NCBI GenBank assembly: GCA_003999685.1
Contig: CP021221.1
Location: 1,178,001 to 1,242,000, forward strand
Direction: 5' to 3'
DNA: 64,000 nucleotides
Source of the DNA: Taiwanofungus camphoratus
Taxonomy: Eukaryota > Basidiomycota > Agaricomycetes > Polyporales > Taiwanofungaceae
Part shown: piece after piece, positions 18,018 to 53,331 of the stretch
Position numbering within the stretch: position 1 is the first letter of the stretch
How the letters are laid out: each line of letters starts with the position of its first letter
Notes under the pieces: model-generated
The model's input: the letters and a program-made list of their open reading frames with translations, nothing else
Database searches by the model: none
What the model was told of the DNA's origin: nothing
Program-made: the position numbers and the translations under genes

Positions 18018-18481
18018 CGGACACGACGGCTGGGTGAGGGCGCAGGTGCTAGTAGGTCCAATCCGGCTGGGGCGGGTCGTGTCTGGCGCAGTCCAAAGTC
18101 AGTGGAGGCGGCGCCGGTGCGGCCAGGCCAAGAGGAGCTAGTGCAGTGCGGGAACAGAAGCAGGAGACAGAAGAAAATAATAAAAAACCGGTGGACAGAG
18201 AGAGAGTATAAATCTCGCGGGAAAGCCTCGACCAGACTAGAGGCGAGCCAGACTGGCCGCTCGGGGAGGAAAGGCAGGTAGGGAGGCCCGAGGGGGAGCA
18301 GCGCAGGCAGACGCCGGCATCAGTCGTTGCGCAGTGGCACATGCACACAGAACCCGTCTGGGCCTCCTTCGCCGTAAAATTTCTCACTCAAATTTGTATT
18401 GTGCGTTGTGTCGTGGACGGCCTAGTTTCTTTCCATGGCCAGCAATTGGTAGTCGGTGCGTGTTGGCGGCTGGACCTGCTC
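18018..18481. promoter_or_regulatory. Promoter region of the prolyl dihydroxylase gene
   Basis: This 464-bp stretch lies upstream of the minus-strand start at 18017 and ends at the left arm of the inverted repeat. A TATAAAT box-like run lies near 18207-18213. The proximal 130 bp are the part that recurs, diverged, at about 24190-24330. Confidence 0.4.
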
Positions 18482-18862
18482 GTGCCCGCCGACATCTTAT
18501 TTCACGTCGCATGCCCCGTTACCGCCGTCGGGCGCCAGTGCTCGTCCTGTGTACTCCAGAATATTCCCTGCCATTCGAGGCGCCAACGCACGCTGGGATG
18601 TCGTATTTTCCTTCCATGACAAGGGGCGGATGCTCTGCCAGTCCCACGCCATGCGACCTTCATTCTATCCGTCCACGCCGACACCCATCGCCTCTGCAAA
18701 GTCCTGGTTGATCTTTTATATAGTCAACTTGCACAGACTTGAGTGCATCTCTGCGAACCAAAAAGCGTGTGGAACGATACATATGTCATGCAAGTCAAGG
18801 GTAATCGTGAGTGTCAATACCCCTATGTAAGAGAATCCCACCGCCGCAGGAACGAACTTAGG

Positions 18863-19537
18863 TTACGCGATGCATCTCTGGGTCCCAGTGTTGTTACTGA
18901 CCTCGCTACACTCCGGTTTTGAGCGGTCGATAGATCTCCAGCCAGCCAAACACCGCTGAGCCCCTTTCTCCAGTGCTTCCATATCCTCACGAAATTGCGC
19001 ATCATCATCCTTCAGCGACAACCGTTGTATGTCGGGCACGTAGTCAACGCCAGCGTCAGCCAGCAGCTTCGCCACCGTCACCTCCCCCTTCCGACACCGC
19101 TCGAGGAACGACTTGAACGTCCAGTCTATCACAAATTGCGGCGTGTTCATCGTCTTGTACCGCGCTGGCTCCGGTCCGTCCGTCGACGCCATGATCATCG
19201 GCTCGTCGCCCAGGCCCATGATCTCCTTGAATTTCTCTAGCCGCTGGGCGTCTTCAGGGGTACGGTACGGCTTCATCATCTTTGTGGGAAAGGTAAAGCA
19301 CGGGCCCTTGCGCCCGTGCCCAACCCACGCGATCCCACCGCTCAACCCCGGAAGCGGTATTGTGCGCCGAAGCCACCGCACAGCGCCACTCAATAGTACG
19401 TCCGCCCACTTCTCAATCCCGTCCCGTTCAGCCCTTGCAAGTAAGGTCGGGTTATGGATCAGTGTAAGCTGCGTAGCGCGTTCGGCGTTGATAATATAAC
19501 CGTAGTGGACGGGATTAGGGTCCCAATACTTCGCCAT
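18863..19537 (-). CDS. ORFan family protein, intact copy A
   Basis: I do not recognise this family. The uninterrupted frame gives 224 aa starting MAKYWDPNPVHYGYIINAER. Conserved blocks shared by all copies are QLTLIHNPTLLAR, the basic GRKGPCFTFPTKMMKPYR, EDAQRLEKFKEIMGLG, STDGPEPARYKT, QFVIDW, FLERCRKGEVTVAKLL and DYVPDIQRLSLKDDDAQ. There is no signal peptide or membrane helix; Trp/Tyr/Pro-rich N-terminus and helical C-terminus. A GAG|GTCAGT donor near 18901 and a TTCGCAG acceptor at 18751 are kept in other copies; splicing (intron 18751-18901) would replace the last residues by RCTQVCAS and end at 18724. The start ATG has the same GCTCGTCATGGCG context in all intact copies, which supports it. 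Confidence 0.7.
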   Translation of the reverse strand: MAKYWDPNPVHYGYIINAERATQLTLIHNPTLLARAERDGIEKWADVLLSGAVRWLRRTIPLPGLSGGIAWVGHGRKGPCFTFPTKMMKPYRTPEDAQRLEKFKEIMGLGDEPMIMASTDGPEPARYKTMNTPQFVIDWTFKSFLERCRKGEVTVAKLLADAGVDYVPDIQRLSLKDDDAQFREDMEALEKGAQRCLAGWRSIDRSKPECSEVSNNTGTQRCIA

Positions 19538-20331
19538 GACGAGCCTGAGGTCAAAGGATCAGTTGACCGAAAGAGGATTGCAACAATTGAACAGCTCAAT
19601 ACAAGTACAACTTGAAAGAGAGAGGCTCTATCGGAAGTTACCTAATATTTAGAAAAAATTGGACGGGTGGGGTACTGGGGCTTACAAAAAGACAATTCTC
19701 AAGCGAGCGAAAGTTCAGCTTCTAAGCGAGCGCGAGCGCGGCCGTAGAATATAGTCTACGTACGGATTAGGCAGTGCGGCGCGCGCTCTCTTGTCTAGCG
19801 TCGCATACTGCCTAAAAACATTATTCCAAGTTGACAGTGTTGCCTTCACATTTTCACCCACTCACCTCTCCCCTTTTCAGCAACTTGCATCTTCGTTGAA
19901 TCCATACGTTCTCATTCCTCTGACTCGGCGCACCTCCCCGTGACCTACCTGGGGCCAGAGTTGCTGAGGCTCACCCGCCCTCACAGCTGATGTTAGACCT
20001 TCTCCCCTTGCTAGGTTCGGGCTCATGTTTTGGGTCAAAAAACCTCAGGTTTTTGCCCACATCGCCACAGTCACTAGTTCCTTATATTAGCGGCCCTGCT
20101 GCAATACTTAATCACAAACTATTGTAAGTACACTCTCTTTCGAATGCAAGTACTAGACGTACATAGACTCTTGCTTGGATATTTGGAAAAGAAGAGATGC
20201 CTACCGAGAACCATCATACGACACAAATCCTCGCAACTTCAGCTCAGCTTCCTTCATCTGCTTTTAAGCTCTAGTTGCTTCGATCATTCAAACTCGTTGC
20301 TCAACGTCGATCTTACGACAACAGATTCGTG
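19538..20331. promoter_or_regulatory. Shared upstream region of copy A and the truncated copy B
   Basis: The start codons of copy A (minus) and copy B (plus) point away from this 794-bp region, so it is a candidate bidirectional promoter. A short hairpin (AAAAACC, TCA, GGTTTTT) sits at 20038-20054 and CTTATATTAG near 20081. The same region, inverted, lies at 32415-33203. Another part of it (about 19538-19715) also recurs upstream of copy C. Confidence 0.45.
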
Positions 20332-20586
20332 ATGTCCAAATATTGGATCGGCAACCCCGCTTACTACGGCTATGTTATTAACATCGAACGCGCCGTGCAA
20401 CTCACGCTGATCCACTGCCTAGTCATACATACAAGGGCGGAACGGAATGGAATGGAGAGCTATACGGCCGCGCTGGTGAGTGCCGCGGCGCAGCGGCTAT
20501 CGTGGAAAGTACCGTTGCTCGAGCTAAGCGGTGCGGATGCGTGGATCGGGCGGGGCGCGAGAGCCCGCTGGACGTTGCAGCGGTGA
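20332..20586 (+). pseudogene. ORFan family, truncated copy B
   Basis: Starts MSKYWIGNPAYYGYVIN and follows the family consensus (ERAVQLTLIHCLVIH, LSWKVPLLELSG, AWIGRG) for 84 codons, then stops just before the MMKPYR block. DNA homology to the family continues to about 20690 in shifted frames (ATGATGAAGTCATACCGC at 20587 equals the MMKPYR codons), so the gene lost its frame and its last two thirds. The sequence type is closest to the copy at 24767-25150. It abuts an inverted fragment of another family member at 20690. Confidence 0.7.
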
Positions 20587-20689
20587 ATGATGAAGTCATA
20601 CCGCATGCCAGAGGCGGCGCAGAGGCTGGAGAATTCGAGGACATCATGGAGCTTGGTGGCGGGCCGCTGCTCAAGGCATCGACGACGGC

Positions 20690-20790
20690 CCTTTCACGTA
20701 GGTCCGGGTTGTGGATAAGCGCAAGCTGCACGGCGCATTCGATGTCGATGATGTGGCCATACATGACAGGGTTGGGGTCCAATGTTTAGA
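20690..20790 (-). pseudogene. ORFan family, inverted 5' fragment
   Basis: Only the first 30 or so codons of a second subtype remain (DPNPVMYGHIIDIECAVQLA, then HNPDLRER), read on the minus strand. The subtype matches the copy at 25373-25912. One base is missing after the TGG codon compared with that copy, so the ATG at about 20790 is out of frame. It is joined tail-to-middle with copy B at about 20690, making a head-to-head nested junction that is repeated in the right arm. Confidence 0.65.
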
Positions 20791-20881
20791 CATTGCTTCC
20801 TGTTCTCAAAAAAATCAAATTTGAGCAAGAAATCCAGTAACAGGAGCGTACAATTTCACAGGTTCCAGTATTATGATCTGT

Positions 20882-21950
20882 CACATTCTATCCGTCCACG
20901 CCGACACCCATCGCCTCTGCAGAGTCCTAGCTGATCTCTCACATAGAGTCAACTTGCACAGACTTCAGCGCATCTCTGCGAACCAAAAAGCGTGTGGAAC
21001 GATACATATGTCATGCAAGTCATAATGAAAGTGGAAGGTAATCGTGAGTACCCCTATGTGAAGGAATCCTGTCGCTGCAAGAACGATCTCAGGCTTCCGC
21101 AATGCTTTGGCTCTGGGGCTTAGTGTTGTTACTGACCTCGCTACACTCCGGTTTTGAGCGGTCGATAGATCTCCAGCCAGCCAAACACCGCTGGGCCCCT
21201 TTCTCCAGTGCTTCCATATCCTCACGAAATTGCGCATCATCATCCTTCAGCGACAACCGTTGTATGTCGGGCACGTAGTCAACGCCAGCGTCAGCCAGCA
21301 GCTTCGCCACCGTCACCTCCCCCTTCCGACACCGCTCGAGGAACGACTTGAACGTCCAGTCTATCACAAATTGCGGCGTGTTCATCGTCTTGTACCGCGC
21401 TGGCTCCGGTCCGTCCGTTGACGCCATGATCATCGGCTCGTCGCCCAGGCCCATGATCTCCTTGAATTTCTCTAGCCGCTGGGCGTCTTCAGGGGTACGG
21501 TACGGTTTCATCATCTTTGTGGGAAAGGTAAAGCACGGGCCCTTGCGCCCGTGCCCAACCCACGCGATCCCACCGCTCAACCCCGGAAGCGGTATTGTGC
21601 GCCGAAGCCACCGCACAGCGCCACTCAATAGTACGTCCGCCCACTTCTCAATCCCGTCCCGTTCAGCCCTTGCAAGTAAGGTCGGGTTATGGATCAGTGT
21701 AAGCTGCGTAGCGCGTTCGGCGTTGATAATATAACCGTAGTGGACGGGATTAGGGTCCCAATACCTCGCCATGACGAGCCTGAGGTCAAAGGATCAGTTG
21801 ACCGAAAGAGGATTGCAACAATTGAACAGCTCAATACAAGTACAACTTGAAAGAGAGAGGCTCTATCGGAAGTTACCTAATATTTAGAAAAAATTGGACG
21901 GGTGGGGTACTGGGGCTTACAAAAAGACAATTCTAAAGCGAGCGAAAGTC
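20882..21950. repeat. Direct repeat of the copy A unit (copy C unit)
   Basis: The unit runs from CATTCTATCCGTCC at 20884, through gene copy C, to about 21945 in its upstream region. It is a near-exact direct repeat of about 18660-19715. After AATTCTAAAGCGAGCGAAAGT the two diverge. The 3' flank here is closer to that of the right-arm copy at 33204 than to that of copy A. Confidence 0.75.
21089..21772 (-). CDS. ORFan family protein, intact copy C
   Basis: The frame gives 227 aa and is identical to copy A over almost the whole protein, with MARYW for MAKYW at the start. The C-terminus differs (NNTKPQSQSIAEA, shared with the copy at 33204). The conserved GAG|GTCAGT donor is present here too; splicing to the TTCGCAG acceptor upstream of the 3' flank would give a short Cys-containing tail. 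Such high identity suggests a recent duplication or ongoing gene conversion. Function unknown; no signal peptide, membrane helix or known motif seen. Confidence 0.7.
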   Translation of the reverse strand: MARYWDPNPVHYGYIINAERATQLTLIHNPTLLARAERDGIEKWADVLLSGAVRWLRRTIPLPGLSGGIAWVGHGRKGPCFTFPTKMMKPYRTPEDAQRLEKFKEIMGLGDEPMIMASTDGPEPARYKTMNTPQFVIDWTFKSFLERCRKGEVTVAKLLADAGVDYVPDIQRLSLKDDDAQFREDMEALEKGAQRCLAGWRSIDRSKPECSEVSNNTKPQSQSIAEA

Positions 21951-22137
21951 CAATGGTTGATGCACTCCAATCGGTTATTATACGCGCAGTTTGCGTCACG
22001 TGAGTATTGTAAAACCAGCGAGAGTCCATTGTTCTGCGAACGGACAATAGAACAATTGAAGATCTTCGAATTGAGTTGTTGTGCATTGTTGTGTGATTGC
22101 CCTCATGCATACATATATAGGGATTTGCCTATCCATC

Positions 22138-23028
22138 ATGGAAGCATGGCAACTTTTGGCTGCCTTTGCCAAAGACCCCGCTTTCAACTATGGTTGCCGT
22201 GAACTGCCTTGGTACGGTCTGTGGAACAACATTCTACGTCGGTTCGAGGAAGTTGAAGCCTGTCACATCTTCCCGCAATATCCCCTATGGCTGATCAAAC
22301 CGCAGTTACCTCCGTCTTCCCCCCCCAATCCGCAAGAGCTAAGTTCTGATGATGATATGTCCACAGGAGGGTTTGATCCTGTCCCTCTATTGCGAATGCG
22401 ACTTGATCAAGGGCAGTTAACTTCACCTTCCACGAAGTCATGGTCACCTCCATCATCTCCCCTTACCCGCAAATCATTGGCTGCCGGCCACTCCGAACTT
22501 CCCATGTTGCGAGGCCACAGCCCTGACTCGCCTATCATCCCTGCAGCTCCAAAGATCTCAACACAAGAAAGCGAGTCTCATAAAGTCACCGATTTCGCTG
22601 TCTTGCAGTTGCGCAGTGGCCCTCGAGTGATCTATGATTATGTCATCCCGATCATTGTTGAGATTAAAGGGGAAGCTGACGAAGATGGTGAAAAGCTGTT
22701 CAAAGCTCAGGTGCAAGTAGAAGAGCAGGTCAAGTACCTGTTCTCCTCACGACGTCAACCTGCTGTCATCGCTATTGCAGTCTCTGGATCAGTTTGGAGA
22801 TGGGCTCAAATTAACAAGAAGGATTTTCAATGGACATATGGTCGTTTTGATGATGAAGACTACATTCCGTCTGATGACATACTTGAGTCTGATTCTGAAT
22901 GGTCAGATGATTATGAGTTGGGGACGAACCGTTCAAACAGAATGCTGGCCAAAATGCATCGTTGGGTGAGAGGTGCCTTTCGAATTGGCCTGGATCCATC
23001 TCTGCCCATTCCTCGTCTGGAACCATGA
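22138..23028 (+). CDS. Putative PD-(D/E)XK-like protein of unknown function
   Basis: A single exon encodes 296 aa from ATG 22138; an in-frame ATG at 22105 would add 11 residues. Residues 1-50 are hydrophobic/aromatic (LPWYGLWNNILRRFEE). Residues 55-145 are Pro/Ser-rich and probably disordered. The core from about 148 to 225 reads KVTDFAVLQL, then PIIVEIKGEADED, then QVQVEEQVKYLF and VIAIAVSGSVWRWAQI. The spacing of Asp152 and Glu175-Ile-Lys177 followed by a Gln-containing helix fits the D...ExK layout of PD-(D/E)XK nuclease folds, as found in many fungal accessory proteins. The C-terminus is acidic (DDEDYIPSDDILESDSEWSDD) and ends in a basic helix. It lies just inside the left arm of the array. 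Fold assignment is inference; it may be an inactive homologue. Confidence 0.6.
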   Translation: MEAWQLLAAFAKDPAFNYGCRELPWYGLWNNILRRFEEVEACHIFPQYPLWLIKPQLPPSSPPNPQELSSDDDMSTGGFDPVPLLRMRLDQGQLTSPSTKSWSPPSSPLTRKSLAAGHSELPMLRGHSPDSPIIPAAPKISTQESESHKVTDFAVLQLRSGPRVIYDYVIPIIVEIKGEADEDGEKLFKAQVQVEEQVKYLFSSRRQPAVIAIAVSGSVWRWAQINKKDFQWTYGRFDDEDYIPSDDILESDSEWSDDYELGTNRSNRMLAKMHRWVRGAFRIGLDPSLPIPRLEP

Positions 23029-23589
23029 CTTGTACGTGAGTTGTTCTTCAAACCGATGGTGCGGTGTCACTGACAATGTTGGCAACAGATCATTCCTGAA
23101 TTGCCGAATTGCTCTTGAATATCCTCACCAATGGAGTTAGTTGTGCGTCCACCAGTCAATTTCTTTCTCAAATGTCTTCATTTTGTGGTTTTACTTTACA
23201 CCGTGATCATATACTGCTAGGATGCATCACAAGTCTAAATGTATGATCGGCTTAGCAGTAGCCCAGCAGTAGCCACATCTGTTATGACAAATGTAGTCCT
23301 ACATGTATTGTACCGTACCAACTTTATGAATTCATGTAGCCAGGGATGCAATCGAACACAATCTTGCACACCAGACGACTGGTTCTAAACATCACCAATT
23401 TGTAGGCCACCAACAAGACACCTAGTGGACACTATGTATCACAATCACAAACTTTTACCACCATACCCATCACACAATCTCCCTCCTCATAATCCACCTA
23501 TCACGTACTGGTGTTCATCCACCCCGTTTATCTTGCGCGCAATCTACTCACCCACTCTGCACAGCCGGAAGGGGAATCCAAAGTGAGAG
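23029..23589. other. Intergenic, no gene seen
   Basis: This 561-bp AT-richer stretch has no supported frame. A CAAGACACCTAGTGGACACTATGTA segment near 23412-23436 resembles one at 26785-26810. The right end runs into the nucleoporin-derived fragment. Confidence 0.4.
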
Positions 23590-23895
23590 GAGGTTCTGAT
23601 GTAACAGGAGTGGTCATAGACGGCGCAGGAATAGGTGCTTGAGTAACGTTCAATGCGCGAACAGTAACTGCAAAGTTTCCACTTGTGAAAAACACATCGA
23701 AGGACAGCAGGTTTGCAGTTTCTATCGCCTGCATGGGCTTATCTGTGGCTTCGACGGATGTGGTTGCCAGGGTACTTGAAGCTGGAATAGCCACTCGCTT
23801 TCCTTCCACACCTCTATGGCGGCGTTCTGTGACAATAGCTGTAGTTTGCTGGTCCTGCATTTCCTACTTAGACTATTTAGAACGCACCTCGATGT
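23590..23895 (-). pseudogene. Decayed fragment of the FG nucleoporin gene
   Basis: The DNA aligns, with divergence, to about 40500-40855 in exon 6 of the nucleoporin gene at 38953-42950, on the same strand. The reading frame is preserved for about 90 codons: AIPASSTLATTSVEATDKP here against AIPASTTPAPSITFATPTEKP there, then ALNVTQAPIPAPSMTTPVTS against LNVPKASTPAPFTTTPATS. At the upstream end the YYSKWEKQ region contains in-frame stops, which would lie inside an intron if the GTACGA donor near 23915 and ATGCAG acceptor near 23857 were used. It directly adjoins the dihydroxylase-derived piece. Confidence 0.65.
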
Positions 23896-24330
23896 ACAAA
23901 ATCTTCGTACCTTTGTAGTAGTATATCTCCTCCGAGAAACTAAACTTTGCAAGTGCCTCCTCGGCTGCACGGAGACGCTCATCTGGAAGGGCTTCCCGAC
24001 GGGAACATGCTTAAAGGAGCTGCTCGTGCTTGATATGTAGGCAGTGGATGGAGGAGGCGCGAACCTCGAGAGCAAAATAGCCCATCTGCTTGTCGTCGGC
24101 GGAGTCACGGTGGGTCATTTTGGTGCGCTTGAGGAGCGCAGGCTGCCCGTTGCTGCCCGTTGGGCCCGAGGAGCGCATCCCTGGTCACGGCCGGTTGGTA
24201 AGGAGACTAGTACTAGTCGGCCCCATCGGGTGGGATGTTTCTGGTACAAATCAAAGGTCAGTGTGGGTGCGCCGATGTCGCCGGACCAAGAGAAGCCATC
24301 ATTTGAGAGCGAGCACGCCGTGCTGCCCCC
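23896..24330 (-). pseudogene. Decayed fragment of the TPA1 5' region (promoter and exon 1)
   Basis: The DNA aligns to about 17715-18145 of the prolyl dihydroxylase gene, same strand. Recognisable pieces are GQPALLKR (near 24150), YFALEV where the parent has HFAPEV, and FSEEIYYYK where the parent has FSEKETDIYK. The first ATG is lost, and a deletion of a few bases in the QSAPFKHA region shifts the frame, so no product related to the parent is expected. The parent promoter is also represented (24190-24330). It abuts the nucleoporin fragment at about 23900-23925. Confidence 0.7.
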
Positions 24331-24615
24331 GGACCGCTGGTGAGAGTAGCTCGGACTCGTCAGGATGCAGGACAGCAACGAGACTGAAAAGTCGGCGAGC
24401 AGATTGTAGGCGTGGGAGTCTTGACCAGACACCCACCAAGTTGAAGACGCACCTTCATCCTACATACCGCGTTTCAAGTCAGCATACAAAGGCCCAAGCG
24501 GAAGATATTGGAGTGCAAGTGCTCAGTTGCGAGTGCTCGTTCAAAAGAGAATCTAGATTCGCTCTCCTTAGATATATACCCTCAATGGATTATTCTGAGC
24601 GACCATTGGCATTAG
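24331..24615. other. Intergenic, no gene seen
   Basis: Sequence between the dihydroxylase-derived fragment and the next family copy. I see no supported frame or repeat. Confidence 0.35.
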
Positions 24616-25150
24616 CACACACCTTCAATGACAACCCTCGCATGTCGGGCGCGCATTCCGCGTCAACGTCAGAAGAACCACTGGCGGACATCAGCAGCGG
24701 TTCCACCGTCACATCCCCCGCCCGACACCGCTCGATGAATACCGTGAGAGACCAGTCTATCACAAACTACGGCGTGTCCAGCGTCTTGTACGGCGCGGGC
24801 TCCGTTCCATCCGTCGATGCCTTGAGCAGCGCCTCATCATCCAGATCCATGATGTCCTTGAATTTCTCCAGTCGCTGCGCCGCCTCTGGTAAGCGGTATG
24901 GCTTCATCATCTGCCGGTGGAACGTCCAGTAGAGACTCTCACGCCCCCACCCGATCAGCTCGAGCAGCGGTACTTTCCACGACAGCCACTGCGCCGCGGC
25001 ACTCACCAGCGCGGCCGTATAGCTCTCCATTCCATTCCGTTCCGCCCTTGTATGTATGACTAGGCAGCGGATCAGCGTGAGTTGCACGGCGCGTTCGATG
25101 TTAGTGATATAGCCGTAATGAACGGGGTTGCGGATCCAATATTTGGACAT
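24616..25150 (-). pseudogene. ORFan family, copy D with an early stop
   Basis: Starts MSKYWIRNPVHYGYITN at 25150 and reads 127 codons in frame through MMKPYRLPEAAQRLEKFKDIMDL and STDGTEPAPYKTLDTP. There a TAG replaces the Gln of the family block TPQFVIDW. Beyond it the same frame continues to match (FVIDWSLT, IERCRAGDVTVEPLL, then PDMRGLSLK near 24630), so the copy is otherwise close to full length. The WIGRGRKGPCF block is shortened. Whether the 128-residue truncated product is made is unknown. Confidence 0.65.
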
Positions 25151-25372
25151 CACGAATCTGTTGTCGTAAGATTAACGTTGAGCGACGAGTTTGAACGATT
25201 GAAGCAACTAGAGCTTACCAGCAGATGAAGGAAGCTGAGCTGAAGGTGCGGAGATTCGTGTCACATGATGGTTTTCAGTAGGTATTTCTTCTTTGCCAAA
25301 TATCCAAGCAAAAGACACTGGAAAGAGATAAAGGAGTGAAGATCATTATGTTGTGAGGGTGTCATATCCCAA

Positions 25373-25912
25373 TTAACGGAATTCACACTCGCGATCCTCT
25401 GCATCAGATTCCTTCAGCGACAGCCGCTGCATATTGGATGCGCAGTCAGCATCAACGCAAGCAGACGCCAGCAGCTTCTCTACCGTCACCTCTCCCGTAC
25501 GATACCGTTTGAGGAACGACGTGAACGTCCAAACTGCGGCGTGTCCACCGTTTTGCATGACGCTGGCTCCGGCCCATCCGCTGACGCCAACAGCAGCGGT
25601 TCGCCGCCCGGGCCCACGATCTGCTTGACCTTCTCCGACAGCTGCGCTGCCTCGAGTGTGCGGTGTGGCTTCATCACCCGTCGGTGAAACGTCCAGCAAG
25701 CACTGCTGCGCCCGCGCCCGATCCACGCGCTCGCATCGCTCAGCTCGGGCATCGGCACCGTGCGCGAGAGCCGCCGCTATACACTCTTCGGACCCGTGGC
25801 GTTCGGCCCTTTCACGTAGGTCCGGGTTGTGGATAAGCGCGAGCTGCACGGCGCGTTCGATGTCGATGATGTAGCCGCACACGACGGGGTTGGGGTCCCA
25901 ATATAATGCCAT
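25373..25912 (-). pseudogene. ORFan family, shifted copy E
   Basis: Starts MALYWDPNPVVCGYIIDIER and matches the family for about 45 codons (QLALIHNPDLRERAERHG). The middle third reads correctly only in another frame (ELSDASAWIGRG, MKPHRTLEAAQLSEKVK, SADGPEPASCKT), and the frame of the start resumes at WTFTSFLKRYRTGEVTVEKLL to the end. Two compensating shifts give a 179-codon frame with a scrambled centre. It defines a second subtype, also present as short 5' fragments at 20690 and 31975. Confidence 0.65.
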
Positions 25913-27051
25913 CTGTCGTCGAAAGAGCGCTGAGCGACAGGAGCCTACAGACAGAGATGGGATGCGGGACGTGCAGGTGCGAATCTGCGCACTTGAAGGC
26001 GTTGGGTGGACGCTAGTCCGCCCTCGTCTGCGGCAGAGAGGAAGGTGGACGTACGGGAGGATGGCGTGAGCTGAAGGCTGCGCGGCGAATACCGCCCAGA
26101 TAAATTATTTTTTTGCTGTCTACGGAGCGTGTACTGGTGCGAGCCCAAGACGGTGCGGTGGGCGATGATGGAAACAGAGAGCGCGCGCGCGAACGCGGAT
26201 GTGGGCTGGCGGGAGATCTCTTCGCTCGGCCGCCCTGGCACAAAAGCATCTCTAGCTCATGCTACAGTAGCGAGAGTGCGCGCCGTTCGCACTCCGAGCG
26301 GGGGAGAAACGTCTGAGGCGAATCATCATTACATCAAAGACGCGAACGGCGTTTCGTCCTTGCAAGGGGTGGCGTTAAACCAAGATGGGGTGAAACAGGA
26401 TCCCCTTGGGTATCCAGCGACTGCGCGCCGTGATTGTCTGCTTCAACAGCTCAGTCGGCGAATAAGTGCGTCGCGCACGCTGCAGGATTGTCACGCAGCG
26501 GTGGCCACCGACCTCAACGAAATGGCAGCCAGGACGCACGAGCATCGCGCGCATCTATCCATCTATGCATTACAGCGAACGTAGTCGAATCATACATACC
26601 GTACCGTACCAAACCATACCATACCATAATTTCAAAGTTCAAACCGCAGGGTTCCAATTCTAAACAGCAAACGCAGCTGCACGACCGCGCACGGCCGTCG
26701 ACCGCCACAGAAGTGAAGAGCGGCTGCCATTGCCAAAGCCATAGCCGGCGCCGAGAACTACTGCACACCAAACATGGACGTACAAGAAGACACCTAGTAG
26801 ACACTATGTACCGCGCTCGCGCCGCAAGGGCGCGCGCGGGCATAAATACCACAGACGAGACCGGGGTAAGGGCGTGGGCGGCCAGCCAGGCCGAGCCGAG
26901 AGAGAACGCGAGTCAGACAAGGACGGAAAGAAAGGGGGGACAACAGGGGCGGCGGGGCGCGAGGGAGGGAGGGGTGGATTACTTTACAGTAGAGACAGTG
27001 ACAACAGACACGAACACGGACACGGACACAGACAGCGCACACGGACGCGCG
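25913..27051. other. Intergenic, no gene seen
   Basis: This 1.1-kb stretch has several long open frames on both strands but none with recognisable domains, intron logic or family matches; GC-rich composition explains them. It holds a short CATAC/TACCG tandem run near 26598-26632 and a GACACG-type hexamer run near 27008-27045, just past the stop of the membrane-protein gene. Confidence 0.4.
27008..27045. repeat. Hexamer-like simple repeat (GACACG)n
   Basis: About six imperfect units of ACACGG/GACACG lie immediately downstream of the stop codon of the minus-strand gene that ends at 27052, probably in its 3' UTR. Confidence 0.6.
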
Positions 27052-28156: not shown

Positions 28157-29225
28157 GTAAAGTGAGTTGTGAGCGGGCAAGGTGGGAAATGGGACAAGGA
28201 AAGCGGTGGCGGACAAGCACGGGATCTCTCGGTGGGGGGGGACGGTGATGGCTGCGGCACACTGACCTCTCGAAGCGACGCGTCATGCCGGGCTGGCTGG
28301 GAGAATGAAAATGGCTTGCAAGGTGAATGTGCGGGGCAGGGCAAGCAGTAAAGGGCGACGGAGCGAGGACAAGGAAGGAAGAGGAGACGGGCCTCTGAGC
28401 TGCAACGGAGCCGGAGAAGAAGCAAGCACACAAAAGGAGCTGCTCTTAGAAATGGCACAACACACACGGCGCCAATCGGGACCACGCCTAATCTCTCTCA
28501 GTAAGCACTCGGCACCCTCGGCACAGCCATATCGGGCACCTGTCTTTGCCCGCCCGCCCATCTCCCCGCCCCACCGCCTCATACATAGTCCACTCACTAC
28601 TCCTGCTGCGCGCGCGTCGATGCAAGATAAGGGCCGCAGCTCGGAGAACAACGCGCCAGCCATGATCACCGTCTGCCATCGTCGCACTCGGTAAGCATCG
28701 GCGTTTGACATCACCCCGATGACTAATCACACCCTGTCCGCGGCGCACGGCCCCGTCGTCCTCACGCGCACGCTCCTATGCAGTCGCGCGTATATACAGA
28801 TGTGCATGTCGAGGTCCAAGCTCCCGCACGCCGTGTACTCTGCTCTCAGCTGCGACCCCGCTGGCAGTATATCTGCTAAACGCGCGATGCTATTGATCAT
28901 CATGACACCTCCCTTCTGACCACTGCCCATAAGTATCCATTGTCCCTCACGCGCACCTGCCTGATGTGTCCGCAAAACGCGTCCCCCGCATGCATCCAGG
29001 CGAGGCTGACAAACAGCCATCACTGTGCCGGACAAGGTGCTTAGCAAGCCCACAACTGGAAGAGTGAATGGCAGCCTGGCAGGTGCGAATCGCACCACAA
29101 CTGTTCGTGAACGTTCAAGCGTCTAGAGCTGCCCAGATCGCCTGGTATCTCTCCTTGCCTCTATTGTACAAAGTCACGTGCACAGTCCCTTTGCGCCCCC
29201 ATCCAGCGCGTAACGCCAGAGAGGC
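28157..29225. other. Intergenic: promoter of the membrane protein and RCF2-2 terminator
   Basis: About 1.07 kb between two minus-strand genes. The left part holds the promoter of the gene starting at 28156. No supported frame, repeat or RNA gene in the rest. Confidence 0.4.
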
Positions 29226-30454
29226 TCACACCGCCTTCCCCGGCCGCGCACCGGGCGCGCCTTGCTTCCTCGCCTTCTCCTCGCGCACCTCCGCCTCGAC
29301 GATGTCGCGCCACGAGTGGTCCGACTCCTGCACCCGGACGCCGATTGAACAGAGCACAGACAACATCGAATAACGAGCCATGAACGAAGAATGAAGAGCA
29401 ACGAGTAATATACGTCACCGTCAGCGCACGCCCACCTTCAAGCGCGCCAGAGGAACTCACGATGTGCCGCACCCCGCGTTCGTCCACCTCCTTGTGCCGC
29501 TTTGCGTGCGTCAGCGCGCCCGCCGCGATCAAGATACCGATCGTCAGACCCTGCGCCCACATGCGCGCCTGCACGATCTGTGTGGTCCCGTGCCGCGTAT
29601 ATCAGCATCACCCGGCCTCCAGCCTCTACCGCTGCTCCTCAGGCACACGCACCTTCTGCGGGAAAGTCTGGTATCTGCGAGGAGTGTCAGCATCTGCTAT
29701 CCACGGACATCGTTGCGCCTCCGGGCAGCGGGGAGCCGGGGGAAAGCGCGAACGAGCACGAGGGATAGTGAATGAGGGGAGAGGCAAGGGGAACGCTGAG
29801 AGGCCAAACGAGGGCACTCACGGGTCGCGCATGATCCACCCGAACGCGCCGACCATGCTCGCAGCCCACGCGCCGCCGATAAGGCCGTACTCGTGGCGCG
29901 CGGCCGTGTCCTTCAGCTTTTGCATAGGCGTGAGCGCCTCCCAGCGCGCGCGCTCCCGTGCCTCTTGCGTGTCGAGCTCCTGCTTGCCCACACCGGTCCT
30001 GTATGAAGCCCGCCAGTCACTCAGTCAGTCAGACGTCAGCCGGTCAGTCCCGTGCACTAGTCACGAAGGGAACCTGCGGGCGCGAATGGGGACAGGAGAA
30101 ATAGGAGGCAGAACGACCGAAAGGGGCAAGGCGAAGCGGCACGCACCAGCGCAACTTCTCGAAGCGCATGCCGGCATGCTCGGCGGGGATGATGAAGCTG
30201 GGGACGGCGACGACGACGATGCCGAACGCCTTGAGGTTGCGCGGGAGCGCGCGGTAGTACGCCCAGCGCTGGTTGAGGAGGTACGCGCCGGGCAGCGCGA
30301 GCGCAAGACCGCCCGCGAGGCCCTTCAGCCCGCCCGCGACGGTCGCGCGCATCTGCGCGTCCTGCTCTTCCTTCGTCGTGAGCTGCGTGTGCGGTTCCGT
30401 CAGCGCTGCGTGGCTCGTCTCAGTGTGGGGAGGCGGGAGGCGGCGTACCTTCAT
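29226..30454 (-). CDS. RCF2: Respiratory supercomplex factor 2 homologue (HIG1 domain), copy 2
   Basis: A second Rcf2-like protein. Six exons (30454-30449, 30382-30147, 29998-29822, 29674-29653, 29577-29461, 29327-29226) give 219 aa. The first exon again holds only ATG AAG, and splicing yields MKLTTKEEQDAQMRATVAGG, matching copy 1 MKFATQEQ. Two hydrophobic segments follow (GLAGGLALALPGAYLL, FGIVVVAVPSFII). The HIG1 part is LIGGAWAASMVGAFGWIM, then PQKIVQARMWAQGLTIGILI. It ends DHSWRDIVEAEVREEKAR, where copy 1 has DHSWANMVEEFQEEEK. It has two more introns than copy 1, one of 148 bp, and a more GC-rich coding sequence. Probably an old duplicate, perhaps used under different oxygen or growth states; that is inference. 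Confidence 0.88.
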
Positions 30455-30829
30455 GATTGTCTAATTGCGAGTGTCTATCACGGTGCTGGGTGGGACGGGG
30501 ACGAGGGGTTAGGTTAGCGAGAGTGCAGGCCCTGGCTGAGCCTATAAACGCGGCCGGGCATGACATCAAGCCTGCGTGCAGCTCAGCCTGCAGGGCGCGC
30601 TGGGCGGCGCCGCCCGGCTGTCCTGGGACACGGCGTCGACGTCATAAGTGCATGGGACCTCGGTAACCCGGTGTATGGATTTGTCAGCAAGTGTTTCCGA
30701 GTCTGTCCGCCATGGCGCGTGACCGAGACGCGGTGCGCGTTGAGGACACGTCCCGGCAGGTAATTGTCCCCCCTCCAAGCCTGCTTTTCCTCTCCGAGCG
30801 GCGAGTCAGGCTCGCCTGCATGTCTAGTC
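30455..30829. other. Intergenic with a possible ORFan-family remnant
   Basis: Upstream of RCF2 copy 2. Near 30590-30640 the DNA reads GALGGAARLSWDT in the plus direction, which resembles the family block ALVSAAAQRLSWKVP of copies B and D. No start codon or further family block is attached to it. No other gene seen. Confidence 0.3.
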
Positions 30830-31438
30830 TGGTTGAGGCACCCCAACCCCGTCGTATACATCATCAACGTCGAACGTGCCGTGCAGCTCGCGCTCGTCCA
30901 CAACCCGGACCTGCGTGCAAGAGCCGTGAGCAGCGGAGGGTGGACAGCGGCGCTGCGCCGCCGTGTGGTGGCTCGCGCACACGATACCGCTGCCAGGGCT
31001 GAGCGTGGATCGGGCGCGGGCGCAGTGGCTCCGCGCTTTACCTTTCCCAGAAAGATGATGAAGCCGTACCGCATCCCTGAAGACGCGCAGCGGCTAGAGA
31101 AATTCAAGGAGATCATGCGCTTGGGTGGCGAGCCGCTGATCATGGCGTCGACGGACGGACCGGAGCCAGCGCGGTACAAGACGATGGACGCGCCGCAATT
31201 TGTGATAGACTGGACGCTCAAGTCGTTCCTCCAGCGGTGTCGGAAGGGGGAGGTGACGGTGGCGAAGTTGTTGGCTGATGCCGGCGTTGACTACGTGCCC
31301 GACATACAACGGTTGTTGCTGAAGGATGATGATGATGATGCACCATTTCGTGAGGATATGGAAGCACTGGAGAAAGGGGCCCAGCGATGTTTGGCTCGCT
31401 GGGGGTCTATCGACCGCTCAAAACCGGAGTGTAGCTAG
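30830..31438 (+). pseudogene. ORFan family, 5'-damaged copy F
   Basis: The family N-terminus begins abruptly at NPVVYIINVERAVQLALVHNPDLRAR (near 30848) without an ATG in frame; the KYWD codons are replaced by unrelated sequence. The next 40 codons run in a shifted frame, and from RFTFPRKMMKPYR (near 31038) to the stop the copy is good: EDAQRLEKFKEIMRLG, ARYKTMDAPQFVIDW, VAKLLADAGVDYVPDIQ. A Met in MMKPYR at about 31054 could start a 128-residue product. The end KPECS followed by TAG replaces the usual SEVSNN by one base change next to the conserved GTCAGT donor. The 3' flank is of the copy A type. Confidence 0.65.
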
Positions 31439-31864
31439 GTCAGTAACAACACTGGGGCCCAGAGATGCATCGCATAACCTAAGTTTATCCTTGCGGCGGT
31501 GGGATTCTCTTACATAGGGGTATTGACACTCACGATTACCTTCCACTTTCACAATGACTTGCATGGCATATTTTTGTTGCGCAGAGAGATGCGTCGTCTT
31601 ACATAGCAAGTTGACTTTACTATGGATTCCCGTGCAAAATGGACAGCGAGTGCGAAATCCTGTCTCGAGCACCACAAACATCACGAAACCTCATAAAGTT
31701 TGGTTGAGGTATAGATCTGATAGCATTCTAAAGGCTCATCAGAGTTTGGTATGATAATGTACAATGTAGCCAATTTACGAGATGCAAATGTGCCGTCGCG
31801 AGACCCAGACAGCGTCATTTCCTGATCATGTTGTCCTGATTTAGCTTTGGAAGGATTGTGTGAC
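31439..31864. other. 3' flank of copy F
   Basis: The first 120 bp match the 3' flank of copy A (AGATGCATCGC, TTACATAGGGGTATTGACACTC), then unrelated AT-rich sequence leads to the sharp inner edge of the right repeat arm. No gene seen. Confidence 0.4.
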
Positions 31865-31965
31865 ACAGATCATAATACTGGAACCTGTGAAATTGTACGC
31901 TCCTGTTACTGGATTTCTTGCTCAAATTTGATTTTTTTGAGAACAGGAAGCAATGTCTAAACATT

Positions 31966-32070
31966 GGACCCCAACCCTGTCATGTACGGCCACATCGTCG
32001 ACATCGAATGCGCCGTGCAGCTTGCGCTTATCCACAACCCGGACCTACGTGAAAGGGCCGTCGTCGATGC
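31966..32070 (+). pseudogene. ORFan family, inverted 5' fragment (right arm)
   Basis: Mirror of the fragment at 20690-20790: about 30 codons of the second subtype (DPNPVMYGHIVDIECAVQ, then HNPDLRER). The same base is missing after the TGG codon, so that change predates the duplication of the arms. Confidence 0.65.
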
Positions 32071-32159
32071 CTTGAGCAGCGGCCCGCCACCAAGCTCCAT
32101 GATGTCCTCGAATTCTCCAGCCTCTGCGCCGCCTCTGGCATGCGGTATGACTTCATCAT

Positions 32160-32414
32160 TCACCGCTGCAACGTCCAGCGGACTCTCGCGCCCCGCCCGA
32201 TCCACGCATCCGCACCGCTTAGCTCGAGCAACGGTACTTTCCACGATAGCCGCTGCGCCGCGGCACTCACCAGCGCGGCCGTATAGCTCTCCATTCCATT
32301 CCGTTCCGCCCTTGTATGTATGACTAGGCAGTGGATCAGCGTGAGTTGCACGGCGCGTTCGATGTTAATGACATAGCCGTAGTAAACGGGGTTGCCGATC
32401 CAATATTTGGACAT
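32160..32414 (-). pseudogene. ORFan family, truncated copy G (right arm)
   Basis: Mirror of copy B: 84 codons starting MSKYWIGNPVYYGYVIN, two or so residues different from copy B (Val for Ala in NPVYYG, Val for Ala in GARVRW). Same early end before the MMKPYR block, so the truncation predates the duplication of the arms. Confidence 0.7.
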
Positions 32415-33203
32415 CACGAATCTGTTGTCGTAAGATCGACGTTGAGCAACGAGTTTGAACAATCGAAGCAACTAGAGCTTAAAAGCAGATGAAGGAAGCT
32501 GAGCTGAAGTTGCGAGGATTTGTGTCGTATGATGGTTCTCGGTAGGCATCTCTTCTTTTCCAAATATCCAAGCAAGAGTCTATGTACGTCTAGTACTTGC
32601 ATTCGAAAGAGAGTGTACTTACAATAGTTTGTGATTAAGTATTGCAGCAGGGCCGCTAATATAAGGAACTAGTGACTGTGGCGATGTGGGCAAAAACCTG
32701 AGGTTTTTTGACCCAAAACATGAGCCCGAACCTAGCAAGGGGAGAAGGTCTAACATCAGCTGTGAGGGCGGGTGAGCCTCAGCAACTCTGGCCCCAGGTA
32801 GGTCGCGGGGAGGTGCGCCGAGTCAGAGGAATGAGAACGTATGGATTCAACGAAGATGCAAGTTGCTGAAAAGGGGAGAGGTGAGTGGGTGAAAATGAAG
32901 GCGACACTGTCAACTTGGAGCTGTGTCATCGAACAATGTTTTTAAGCAGTATGCGACGCTGGACAAGAGAGCGCGCACCGCACTGCCTAATCCGTACGTA
33001 GACTTTATTCTACGGCCGCGCTTGCGCTCGCTTAGAAGCCGAACGCTTGAGAATTGTCTTTTTGTAAGCCCCAGTACCCCAGCTGTCCAATTTTTTCTAA
33101 TTATTAGATAACTTCCGATAGAGCCTCTCTCTTTCAAGCTGTACTTGTATTGAGCTGTTCAATTGTTGCAATCCTCTTTCATGCAACTGACCTCAGGCTC
33201 GTC
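32415..33203. promoter_or_regulatory. Shared upstream region of truncated copy G and copy H
   Basis: Mirror of 19538-20331. The AAAAACC/GGTTTTT hairpin recurs at 32692-32708. The part near copy H (33100-33203) carries the conserved leader ending GCTCGTCATGGCG. Confidence 0.45.
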
Positions 33204-33890
33204 ATGGCGAAGTATTGGGACCCTAATCCCGTCCACTACGGTTATATTATCAACGCCGAACGCGCTACGCAGCTCACGCTGATTCACAATCCAACTTTAC
33301 TTGCAAGGGTTGAACGGGATGGGATTGAGAGGTGGGTGGCGTCACTATTGAATGGCGCCGTGAGGTGGCTTTCGCGCACGATACCGCTTCCGGGGCTGAG
33401 CGGCGGGGCCGCGTGGATTGGGCGCGGGCGCAAGGGCCCGTGCTTTACCTTTCCCACAAAGATGATGAAGCCGTACCGTACCCCTGAAGACGCCCAGCGG
33501 CTGGAGAAATTCAAGGAGATCATGGGCCTGGGTGGCGAGCCGCTGATCATGGCTTCGACGGACGGACCGGAGCCAGCGCGATACAAGACGGTGGACGCGC
33601 CGCAATTTGTGATAGACTGGACACTCAAGTCATTCCTCGAGCGGTGTCGGAAGGGGGAGGTGACGGTGGCGAAGTTGTTGGCTGACGCCGGCGTTGAATA
33701 CGTGCCCGACATACAACGGTTGTCGCTGAAGGATGATGATGATGCACAGTTTCGTGAGGATATGGAAGCACTGGAGAAAGGGGCCCAGCGGTGTTTGGCT
33801 GGCTGGAGATCTATCGACCGCTCAAAATCGGAGTGTAGCGAGGTCAGTAACAACACTAAGCCCCAGAGCCAAAGCATTGCGGAAGCCTGA
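33204..33890 (+). CDS. ORFan family protein, intact copy H
   Basis: 228 aa, MAKYWDPNPVHYGYIINAER, all family blocks intact. It differs from copies A and C mostly between residues 35 and 80 (ARVERDGIERWVASLLNG, LSGGAAWIGRG). An extra Asp extends the KDDDDAQ run (a GAT repeat). The C-terminus NNTKPQSQSIAEA and the 3' flank match copy C. The GAG|GTCAGT donor and GGTTCGCAG acceptor (near 34002) are present; splicing would give a RCAEVCAS end and stop near 34027. The two-part tail choice is shared with copy A, which supports a real 3' intron. Confidence 0.7.
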   Translation: MAKYWDPNPVHYGYIINAERATQLTLIHNPTLLARVERDGIERWVASLLNGAVRWLSRTIPLPGLSGGAAWIGRGRKGPCFTFPTKMMKPYRTPEDAQRLEKFKEIMGLGGEPLIMASTDGPEPARYKTVDAPQFVIDWTLKSFLERCRKGEVTVAKLLADAGVEYVPDIQRLSLKDDDDAQFREDMEALEKGAQRCLAGWRSIDRSKSECSEVSNNTKPQSQSIAEA

Positions 33891-34283
33891 GATCGTTCTT
33901 GCAGCGACAGGATTCCTTCACATAGGGGTACTCACGATTACCTTCCACTTTCATTATGACTTGTATGACATATGTATCGTTCCACACGCTTTTTGGTTCG
34001 CAGAGATGCGCTGAAGTCTGTGCAAGTTGACTCTATGTGAAAGATCAGCTAGGACTCTGCAGAGGCGATGGGTGTCGGCGTGGACGGATAGAATGAAGGT
34101 CGCATGGCGTAGGACTGGCAGAGAATCCGCTCCTTGTCATGGATATGGAGAAGGAAAATACGACATCCCAGCGTGCGTGGGCGCCTCGAATGGCAGGGAA
34201 TATTCTGGAGTACACAGGACGAGCACTGGCGCCCGACGGCGGTAACGGGGCATGCGACATGAAATGAGATGTCGGCGGGCACC

Positions 34284-34903
34284 TCGCGCTGCTTTCCTGC
34301 TGCATTCTTCACCAATAGTCTGATGTCGTGGAACGGTCACGTGATACGAGTCTGTGCGCGTTCCTGTACTCTTTGCCTGTGTCTCCCTCAACGTTAGAGA
34401 GGCTGTGGATATGCGCAGGTATGGGCGTCAACGAGGCCTACGTGCTGAGGTCTAAAGCGCGCACGCCAGCCACCCCGGAAAGGGGGCAGACGCGGGCCGC
34501 CACAGGAGACTACAAAAAGAGGACTAGCTGAGATGTAAGAAGTAGGTAGTAAGATAATTGTGCGAATGAATATTAGGATGAATGAGGGGATGGTGGGAGG
34601 GGTCATGAAAATACGCGCATGGCAGTCGCGCTGCGAGCAGAGCGTGAGACGACGGTGTCTCACTCTGCCCGTTGATCCTATATATGCCGGATTTTGTTGC
34701 TTTGACCGTTGGACTTTGAGGACAAAGCGGCATTCGTGAAGGGGGAGCAGAGCACGAAAGAACCCGAACTTTGTTCCGAAGTTCGATCCATTTTACTATT
34801 CACTTTTGCGCAGCAACTCAGCTAACAACGGCTGCCCACTGTTTGCACATTCCAGTTGCTCAATCCTATTTTGTACAACTGATCATTCGACCACAGGCTC
34901 GTC
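34284..34903. other. Intergenic between copies H and I
   Basis: 620 bp outside the repeat arm. TATATATGCC near 34680 and the last 20 bp before copy I (ACAGGCTCGTCATGGCG) resemble the leaders of the other copies; the rest is unrelated to them. No gene seen. Confidence 0.4.
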
Positions 34904-35596
34904 ATGGCGAGGTATTGGGTCTCTAATCCTGTCCACTACGGTTATATTATCAACGCCGAACGCACTACGCAGCTCACGCTGATTCACAATCCAACTTTAC
35001 TTGCAAGGGTTGAACGGGATGGGATTGAGAGGTGGACGGCGTCACTATTGAGTGGCGCCGTGCGGTGGCTTCGGCGCACAATACCGCTTCCGGGGTTGAG
35101 CGGTGGGATCGCGTGGATTGGGCGCGGGCGCAAGGGCCCCTGCTTTACCTTTCCTAGAAAGATGATGAAGCCGTACCGTACCCCTGAAGACGCCCAGCGG
35201 CTGGAGAAATTCAAGGAGATCATGGGCCTGGGCGACGAGCCGATGATCATGGCGTCAACGGACGGACCGGAGCCAGCGCGGTACAAGACGATGAACACGC
35301 CGCAATTTGTGATAGACTGGACGCTCAAGTCATTCCTCGAGCGGTGTCGGAAGGGGGAGGTGACGGTGGCGAAGCTGCTAACTGATGCTGGCGTTGACTA
35401 CGTGCCCGACATACAGCGGTTGTCGCTGAAGGATGATGATGCGCAATTTCGTGAGGATATGGAAGCACTGGAGAAAGGGGCCCAATGGTGTTTGGATCAA
35501 TGGGGATCTAACACCGCTCAACCGAAGGCTGAACCGGATTGTAGCGAGGTCAGTAACAACACTGGGGCCCAGAGGCGGCAGGATCCTTTGACGTGA
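34904..35596 (+). CDS. ORFan family protein, intact copy I
   Basis: 230 aa, MARYWVSNPVHYGYIINAER. It lies outside the inverted repeat and has its own upstream sequence. Family blocks are intact (GRKGPCFTFPRKMMKPYR, FLERCRKGEVTVAKLLTDAG). Its end carries a unique insertion, NTAQPKAEPDCSEVSNN, and finishes GAQRRQDPLT. The GTCAGT donor and a GGTGTGCAG acceptor near 35670 are conserved, so the optional 3' intron may exist here too. The codon changes between I and H are largely silent or conservative by eye, hinting at selection on the protein. Confidence 0.7.
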   Translation: MARYWVSNPVHYGYIINAERTTQLTLIHNPTLLARVERDGIERWTASLLSGAVRWLRRTIPLPGLSGGIAWIGRGRKGPCFTFPRKMMKPYRTPEDAQRLEKFKEIMGLGDEPMIMASTDGPEPARYKTMNTPQFVIDWTLKSFLERCRKGEVTVAKLLTDAGVDYVPDIQRLSLKDDDAQFREDMEALEKGAQWCLDQWGSNTAQPKAEPDCSEVSNNTGAQRRQDPLT

Positions 35597-35912
35597 CACT
35601 CATGATTATCCCTTTCGTCATGACTTGCATGACATATTGTATATCATTCGACACGCTTTTTGGTGTGCAGAGATGACTTTATATGAACGATCAGCCAGGG
35701 TTCTGCAGAGGCAATAAGTAGCCATGGATAGAACTTTGGTCACGTGACAGGCCAAACGGCTCTGTGCCTCTGCGTAACTACTAACGACTGATGCCGGCGC
35801 CTGCTACATGCCATGCACAAAGTTCCGATGTCAGTGCTACAAAAAAGCAATGGACAGCCATGTCTCCGGACACAGGTCAAGCCCAACGGCTGATGTATTG
35901 AGTGTGCAAAGA
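35597..35912. other. 3' flank of copy I and tail of the array
   Basis: The first 120 bp (CATGACTTGCATGACATATTG, then TTCGACACGCTTTTTGG) match the 3' flanks of the other copies. After about 35720 no homology is seen. The minus-strand gene ends at 35913. Confidence 0.45.
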
Positions 35913-52134: not shown

Positions 52135-52324
52135 AAACGCAGGAGTTGGCCAATAGAAAAGTATAGTATAGGGAAGGATTTTTGCAGACTCAGGTTCCGC
52201 GCCAGTGCTGAATATTGTTTACCCTAGAATAGGGTTATATGTGCGATCGCCATTACTCAGAAAGTGCATACTATTATTGGCTGGAGCTGCGAATACTCGT
52301 TTACCGAGGCTCTTACGAGCGTCG

Positions 52325-53270: not shown

Positions 53271-53331
53271 ATGCACGCTCATCCTAAGTTTAGGCCTTAC
53301 ATACTAAGTGAAATGGAAAGAGTTTGCGCTC

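What the first reader, a model, noticed from the sequence alone, without database searches (positions are those of the whole stretch)
18482..35720. Inverted, mosaic array of an unrecognised ~225-residue gene family
At least nine copies or fragments of one protein family lie in 17 kb: four look whole, the rest are truncated, shifted or chimeric. Two 2.4-kb blocks containing them are near-identical inverted repeats around an 11-kb spacer. All intact copies keep the same start context and the same conserved blocks (MMKPYR, EDAQRLEKFKEIM, DGPEPARYKT, QFVIDW, RCRKGEVTVAKLL). Repeated duplication with several preserved frames suggests a fast-evolving accessory function such as conflict, recognition or effector-type roles, though no toxin, nuclease or membrane motif is seen.
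Basis: partly seen in the sequence, partly recalled or inferred. Interest (0 to 1): 0.78.

Follow-up and report, generated by a model that had tools for sequence, protein, structure and literature searches.

The report
Species-restricted mushroom gene family array
A medicinal mushroom carries, at one chromosomal spot, a cluster of whole and broken copies of a protein gene that the searches made here found in no other organism; the protein shows long-term constraint, the cluster is reshuffled by duplication and gene conversion, and the function is unknown.

Summary
In 17 kb lie four whole copies (A, C, H, I) and five broken or chimeric ones (B, D, E, F, G) of one ~25.5-kDa protein family. Two ~2.4-kb inverted blocks (93% overall, 99% over 1,050 bp) flank a 10.9-kb spacer; one more broken copy lies on another contig. 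Contig length identifies the window as chromosome II of Taiwanofungus camphoratus monokaryon W1. Word-filtered searches of 5.8 billion proteins returned only T. camphoratus proteins; Pfam, NCBIfam and PDB gave no credible relative; AlphaFold gave no usable model. The family is a constrained protein: omega 0.26 over the core of the intact copies (significantly below 1), 0.15-0.42 against older paralogues. Two pairs of broken copies give about 0.6-0.7, from few changes. Copies exchange tracts by gene conversion, apparently between strains too. A remnant of a probable tyrosine-recombinase retrotransposon sits exactly where two duplication units meet, so it may have helped build the array; nothing indicates that it encodes the family. 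Best reading: an orphan gene family under birth-and-death evolution beside Ofd1. The 'fast-evolving conflict gene' reading is not supported by rates, apart from a weak hint of a variable segment (residues 36-75). Molecular function is unknown.

The parts
18863..19537 (-). Copy A, whole ORF, 224 aa
21089..21772 (-). Copy C, whole ORF, 227 aa; 99% to A by protein, 3' flank shared with H
33204..33890 (+). Copy H, whole ORF, 228 aa
34904..35596 (+). Copy I, whole ORF, 230 aa; 5' region unlike that of A/C/H beyond about 70 bases
30842..31462 (+). Copy F, broken: start missing, N-half altered, one TAG near the C-terminus; C-half from 31055 close to intact copies; 5' end joined to a copy of an Ofd1-upstream segment (30772-30839)
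24623..25150 (-). Copy D, older paralogue (57-59% aa identity to C, H, I), stopped by TAG after about 128 residues
25388..25912 (-). Copy E, older paralogue (54-70% aa identity in three pieces), frame broken twice
20332..20634 (+). Copy B, D-like N-half with one TGA, truncated
20672..20782 (-). E-like N-terminal piece fused head-on to B
32112..32414 (-). Copy G, inverted twin of B
31967..32074 (+). Twin of the E-like piece, beside G
18482..20898 (.). Inverted block 1 (A, retroelement remnant, B)
   Evidence: 93% to 34282-31848
31848..34282 (.). Inverted block 2 (G, retroelement remnant, H)
19715..20167 (+). Remnant (A2-to-B2 end) of a probable tyrosine-recombinase retrotransposon with split direct repeats, at the junction of the A-type and B/D-type duplication units
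   Evidence: exact ends read from the sequence
32579..33042 (-). The same remnant in inverted block 2
   Evidence: exact ends read from the sequence
23927..24296 (-). Two stretches (23927-24150, 24228-24296) of a decayed duplicate of the 5' end of the neighbouring Ofd1 gene and its upstream side, near D
15907..17974 (-). Neighbouring Ofd1-type 2-oxoglutarate oxygenase gene (exons); anchor of the locus, not a family member
   Evidence: the 5' limit is approximate, from the duplicated stretch

Best explanation
This is a protein-coding gene family detected only in T. camphoratus, evolving by birth and death at one locus next to Ofd1. It encodes a ~225-residue protein with no evident signal peptide or membrane segment. 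Shown: both recent copies (A, H, I) and the separation of the older D/E type from the A type carry the mark of selection on the amino-acid sequence, while other copies were lost by stops, frame breaks and fusions. Shown: copies share tracts in a mosaic way that fits gene conversion. Inferred: the array grew by segmental duplication involving the Ofd1 side, followed by an inverted block duplication, and recombination at copies of a retrotransposon joined A-type and B/D-type units. Inferred, with about 35% confidence: the product is an intracellular, probably mostly helical, non-enzymatic binding or regulatory protein whose redundant copies supply dosage and a modestly variable surface (residues 36-75). 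The biochemical function itself is not established.
For: Whole ORFs in four copies. pN/pS in the 193-codon core is 0.20-0.32 in 9 of 10 pairs among A, C, H, I and F (Fisher p 1e-6 to 0.018); A-C has only 3 changes (p = 0.13). After masking CpG sites 7 of those 9 stay below p = 0.05 (A-F 0.086, H-I 0.097). Codon model on A, C, H, I: omega 0.259, lnL -1045.20, against omega fixed at 1, lnL -1057.68; 2 delta lnL = 25.0, p about 6e-7 worked out by hand; a second model form gave omega 0.220, lnL -1085.84 against -1101.99. The branches A, H, I separately: 0.25, 0.28, 0.31 (binomial p 0.002, 0.002, 0.03). Older paralogues D, E, B and the inverted E-like piece against C, H and I: dN/dS 0.15-0.42 in 18 of 18 comparisons, pS 0.43-0.71, all Fisher p < 0.02. 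Variable columns by codon position 17/13/30, p = 0.02. Mosaic: in the trio A, C, H, runs of shared variants C-H and A-C of 27 sites each, permutation p = 0.0002. V5's protein corresponding to copy I differs from W1's by 6 residues, all within 111-132, 5 of them equal to H. Junctions: A-C homology ends and B-D homology begins at the two ends of the retroelement remnant. No relative outside T. camphoratus among the candidates scored (408,997,607), in viral contigs or in prokaryote genomes.
Against: No expression data were available. AlphaFold mean pLDDT was 41.9 and 42.6, so the helical claim rests on low-confidence helices only. Some of the constraint may be ancestral. Flanks of A against H differ by 6% and 11% while silent sites differ by about 18%, so conversion or the mutation pattern distorts simple dating. 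The contrast with broken copies is weak: two pairs only, B-D dN/dS 0.68 and the inverted piece against E about 0.60 (pN/pS from the printed counts), 26 and 18 changes, not tested against 1 or against 0.3. Homologue searches need shared 5-residue words and a limited length range, and close relatives of Taiwanofungus may be missing from the set, so 'restricted to T. camphoratus' may be a sampling result.
Confidence: 0.72

Rival explanations
1. A dying array: the gene was functional in the past, but all copies are now unexpressed relics, and the four open frames are the ones not yet hit or freshly restored by conversion.
For: Five of nine local copies and the C8 copy are broken; no expression evidence; A-C differ too little to show current constraint.
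Against: Branch-specific constraint on A, H and I separately; four whole frames despite silent divergence near 0.2 between A/C, H and I. Strain V5 has two whole-length annotated members (P0001, P0002).
Confidence: 0.13
2. A conflict or selfish gene family (spore killer, allorecognition or defence), with copy turnover and conversion feeding diversity.
For: Lineage-restricted in the searches made, mixed intact and dead copies, tract exchange between copies and apparently strains; replacement-rich segment 36-75; association with a retroelement.
Against: Omega 0.26 overall; segment effect p = 0.05 after correction; no domain found by Pfam or NCBIfam and no hydrophobic segment.
Confidence: 0.08
3. 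A transposon-borne or recently domesticated transposon protein.
For: A retroelement remnant in both inverted blocks; one dispersed copy on C8 whose start is joined to a sequence that recurs on C5 and C3.
Against: Family copies were found at one locus plus one on C8, while 39 of the 56 matches are pieces of the retroelement, on 11 of 15 contigs. No Pfam domain in the intact copies. Homology around I and the C8 copy ends at different points from that around A/C/H.
Confidence: 0.05

Closest known systems
Lineage-restricted ('orphan') multigene families under birth-and-death evolution (general class, recalled)
   Same: No outside relatives found, clustered intact and dead copies, gene conversion, purifying selection on intact copies.
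   Different: This particular protein is in none of the libraries searched (Pfam, NCBIfam, PDB sequences); compact inverted array with a retroelement remnant at a junction.
wtf gene family of fission yeast (spore killers; recalled, not tested)
   Same: Species-restricted, multicopy, many dead copies, non-allelic gene conversion, retroelement remnants nearby (wtf features recalled).
   Different: wtf proteins are membrane proteins with several exons and fast protein evolution (recalled); here no hydrophobic segment and omega 0.26.
Ngaro/PAT-like tyrosine-recombinase retrotransposons (layout recalled)
   Same: The element on C1 has the A1-ORFs-B1.A2-B2 repeat layout and a weak integrase match (Pfam Phage_integrase E = 0.0084, below the curated cut-off); the window holds its A2-to-B2 end.
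   Different: It is a neighbour of the gene family, not shown to be its source; a reverse transcriptase was not identified here.

Membership tests
Lineage-restricted multigene family under birth-and-death evolution | No relatives detected outside the lineage | tested here: met
   7 of 7 distinct hits are T. camphoratus proteins or the window's own; 0 of 60: 0 of 26 pattern matches confirmed. Word-based search, so distant relatives could be missed
Lineage-restricted multigene family under birth-and-death evolution | Intact copies under purifying selection, others decayed | tested here: met
Lineage-restricted multigene family under birth-and-death evolution | Expression of intact copies | not testable with these tools
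Transposon-encoded protein | Transposase, reverse transcriptase, integrase or similar domain | tested here: not met
   0 families in 4 of 4 intact copies at E <= 1
Transposon-encoded protein | Many dispersed copies with common ends | tested here: not met
   one locus plus one C8 copy (the tool calls its counts lower bounds)
Meiotic driver or allorecognition family | Rapid or positively selected protein evolution | tested here: inconclusive
   overall omega 0.26; segment 36-75 elevated, corrected p = 0.05
Meiotic driver or allorecognition family | Transmission distortion or incompatibility in crosses | not testable with these tools
   needs crosses
Ngaro/PAT-like retrotransposon (for the remnant at 19715-20167) | Split direct repeats | tested here: met
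   159-bp and 191-bp repeats in A1...B1.A2...B2 order in the related element on C1, both 100%
Ngaro/PAT-like retrotransposon (for the remnant at 19715-20167) | Tyrosine recombinase plus reverse transcriptase | tested here: inconclusive
   weak integrase match only, in 1 of 2 ORFs of the C1 element scanned

The most novel reading that the evidence does not exclude
The array is a selfish or self/non-self locus of a new protein type: a conserved scaffold with a variable segment (residues 36-75), kept polymorphic between mating-compatible strains by conversion among copies, acting in spore survival or nuclear compatibility.
Probability: 0.06. Interest if true: 0.75.

Novelty: new member of a known kind. 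Interest (0 to 1): 0.36.

Why it matters
It documents a protein family, undescribed in the searches made, with old internal divergence and clear constraint but no detected relatives, in a sequenced mushroom with a crossing system. It also gives a compact example of a retroelement remnant lying exactly on duplication junctions, with tract exchange visible between strains. If the function were found it would add a new protein type; as an evolutionary pattern it is familiar.

Tried and rejected
Fold by AlphaFold2 with two alignments (mean pLDDT 41.9 and 42.6) was unusable. Weak single-sequence PDB hits (PdxS, pyrophosphatase, E 0.5-0.8) vanished with the profile. A weak NCBIfam hit (Btc22 chaperone, best E = 0.12, 2 of 10 members) was rejected as chance. 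PHROGs and PADLOC were not scanned.

The upstream frame of the C8 copy looked like a lost first exon. It is instead a stretch that recurs on C5 and C3, so I dropped the idea of a longer ancestral protein. Possible introns upstream of the ATG and after the SEVSNNT motif were considered by eye only and not relied on. A link with the mating-type loci was considered: the paper's section on them names flanking genes (b-fg, mip1, pho84, dim1) and puts the two loci on two different chromosomes without naming them. Of 23 window ORFs scanned with Pfam (5, 8, 10) none matched such a gene, which is not a full gene annotation. Literature: searches listed no paper that by title or abstract describes this family. 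Of PMC8865532 I saw the abstract and outline, passages and sections 6, 7, 9 and 11; of PMC11678574 passages and the start of its abstract in a listing; of the rest search listings only.
Full report
WHAT IS THERE. The window lies at C2:1178001-1242000 of a 33.2-Mb, 15-contig genome. Contig C2 is 3,401,759 bp long, exactly the length given for chromosome II of T. camphoratus monokaryon W1 in PMC8865532 (section 9), so the source is that brown-heart-rot mushroom. The genome total held here, 33,194,378 bases, is a little below the 33,373,109 given for W1; I take this as left-out small contigs or mitochondrial DNA, unchecked. The four whole copies are A, C (minus strand) and H, I (plus strand). The other five are B, D, E, F and G. 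D has one stop, E is broken into three frame segments, F lacks its start and has an altered N-half and one stop, and B and G are mirror-image chimeras of a D-like N-half and an inverted E-like N-terminal piece. A tenth copy on C8 has its frame broken by shifts and stops. Three single-protein searches of the whole genome at E <= 10 (16, 12 and 17 matches) found no other place; the tool calls such counts lower bounds.

HOW IT WAS BUILT. Self-comparison gives an inverted block pair 18482-20898 / 34282-31848 at 93%; a direct repeat 18661-19717 / 20884-21952 at 95% (units of A and C); and 20168-20684 against 25314-24812 at 86% (units of B and D). Between the A unit and the B unit sits a 453-bp remnant (19715-20167). 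It is 79% identical, over 469 columns, to the right end of an element on C1 whose repeats lie in the order A1, ORFs, B1 joined to A2, B2, as in retrotransposons with split direct repeats (the comparison with Ngaro/PAT elements is recalled). One of the two ORFs of that element scanned has a weak integrase match, below the curated cut-off. In one search, 39 of 56 matches are pieces of this element, on 11 of 15 contigs. A-C homology stops at the left end of the remnant and B-D homology starts at its right end. Recombination between two copies of the element is the simplest way to get both edges (inference). Part of the 5' end of the neighbouring Ofd1 gene is duplicated near D (23927-24150, 69%; 24228-24296, 71%), and a segment from upstream of Ofd1 (18225-18286) recurs directly upstream of F (30772-30839, 79%). 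So units were copied from, or recombined with, the Ofd1 side. Ofd1 was recognised by Pfam Ofd1_CTDD and 2OG-FeII_Oxy domains.

CONVERSION. Identity along the aligned units changes abruptly. Over alignment columns 300-899 (coding) A and C are 98-100% identical and H is 78-100% identical to them; over columns 950-1199 C and H are 95-100% identical while A and C are 71-100%. In the trio A, C, H, the longest runs of shared variants are beyond 5,000 column shuffles: C-H 27 sites and A-C 27 sites, both p = 0.0002; A-H is not (p = 0.38). I ran 24 pair tests in five sets; 14 had p < 0.01, but they overlap, and sets with copy I include a 5' stretch where I is not alignable, so the trio is the cleanest. 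Between strains, the annotated V5 protein AcV5_000767 (P0002) differs from W1's copy I at 6 residues, all within 111-132; 5 of the 6 match copy H.

SELECTION. In the 193-codon core, pN/pS is 0.20-0.32 in 9 of 10 pairs among A, C, H, I and F (Fisher p 1e-6 to 0.018); A-C has only 3 changes. With CpG sites masked, 7 of these 9 stay below p = 0.05, A-F is 0.086 and H-I 0.097. The codon model gives omega 0.259 against fixed 1.0 with 2 delta lnL = 25.0; a second form gives 0.220 with 2 delta lnL = 32.3. In the trio A, H, I each branch shows 0.25-0.31; in trios with F, limited to its C-half, 4 of 9 branches do not reach p = 0.05 (F against H, I 0.052; A with F and I 0.40; A and F with H 0.052 and 0.12). 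The older paralogue pieces D, E1, E2, E3, B and the inverted E-like piece against C, H and I give dN/dS 0.15-0.42 in 18 of 18 comparisons, pS 0.43-0.71, all Fisher p < 0.02. Two pairs of broken copies give higher values, B-D 0.68 and the inverted piece against E about 0.60, from 26 and 18 changes and without a test against 1. The gene was therefore constrained long before the recent duplications; relaxation in broken copies is suggested only. Against my reading: non-coding flanks of A and H differ less (6% upstream, 11% downstream) than silent sites (about 18%), which shows that conversion or a special mutation pattern disturbs the clock. Over the whole alignment including the tails the ratios are higher (0.22-0.56). 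Replacements concentrate in residues 36-75 (15 replacement: 6 silent, against 13: 25; p = 0.008, 0.05 after correction). That allows a variable surface or a loose segment and proves neither.

WHAT IT IS NOT. No Pfam family at E <= 1 in the four intact copies, nothing in NCBIfam beyond a chance hit, nothing in PDB by profile at E <= 10. No membrane segment or signal-like N-terminus by hydropathy; no dedicated predictor was run. Protein searches: 6 hits of 408 candidates with one copy, 7 of 7,997 scored with a profile (where further candidates were left unscored), 1 of 1,607 among longer proteins; these are seven distinct proteins, of T. camphoratus strains or of the window itself. Viral contigs: 60 pattern matches, none confirmed; prokaryote genomes: 26, none confirmed. 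The search method needs shared 5-residue words, so a very distant relative could be missed.

FUNCTION. The structure models are too poor to use. The committed guess, an intracellular helical binding or regulatory protein with dosage from several copies, is inference from composition (25-26 kDa, pI 7.6-8.3, no hydrophobic segment) and from selection. PMC8865532 reports 354 T. camphoratus-specific fruiting-related genes, mostly unannotated (passage); whether this family is among them could not be checked.

VERDICT. Observation confirmed. Interpretation half right: a constrained family with rapid copy turnover, not a demonstrably fast-evolving conflict protein. As a kind of thing it is ordinary; as a protein family it appears undescribed in the searches named.

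Noticed in passing
22081-23028 (+): A 315-aa ORF between copies C and D, with one match in the genome, itself, at E <= 0.001 and no Pfam match; by eye it carries a D...ExK-like stretch (TDFAVL...IVEIKGE) reminiscent of PD-(D/E)XK nucleases (recalled), which was not tested.
   Followed up: partly
19715-20167 and 32579-33042; L032 1281-6969: Remnant of a retrotransposon with split direct repeats, whose fuller copy on C1 has a 1148-aa ORF with a weak integrase match; related pieces recur on 11 of 15 contigs.
   Followed up: partly
30772-30839: The broken copy F begins directly after a copy of a segment from upstream of Ofd1, a possible promoter-capture fusion.
   Followed up: partly
L029 4431-4509 (C8), L030 about 2403-2480, L031 about 1916-2028: The broken C8 copy is joined, at its start-codon position, to a sequence that recurs on C5 and C3; a small dispersed repeat.
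   Followed up: partly
52000-62000: G+C falls from about 0.54-0.58 to 0.43-0.50 over some 10 kb at the right of the window; the three longer ORFs checked at 51.4-61.4 kb have no Pfam match.
   Followed up: no
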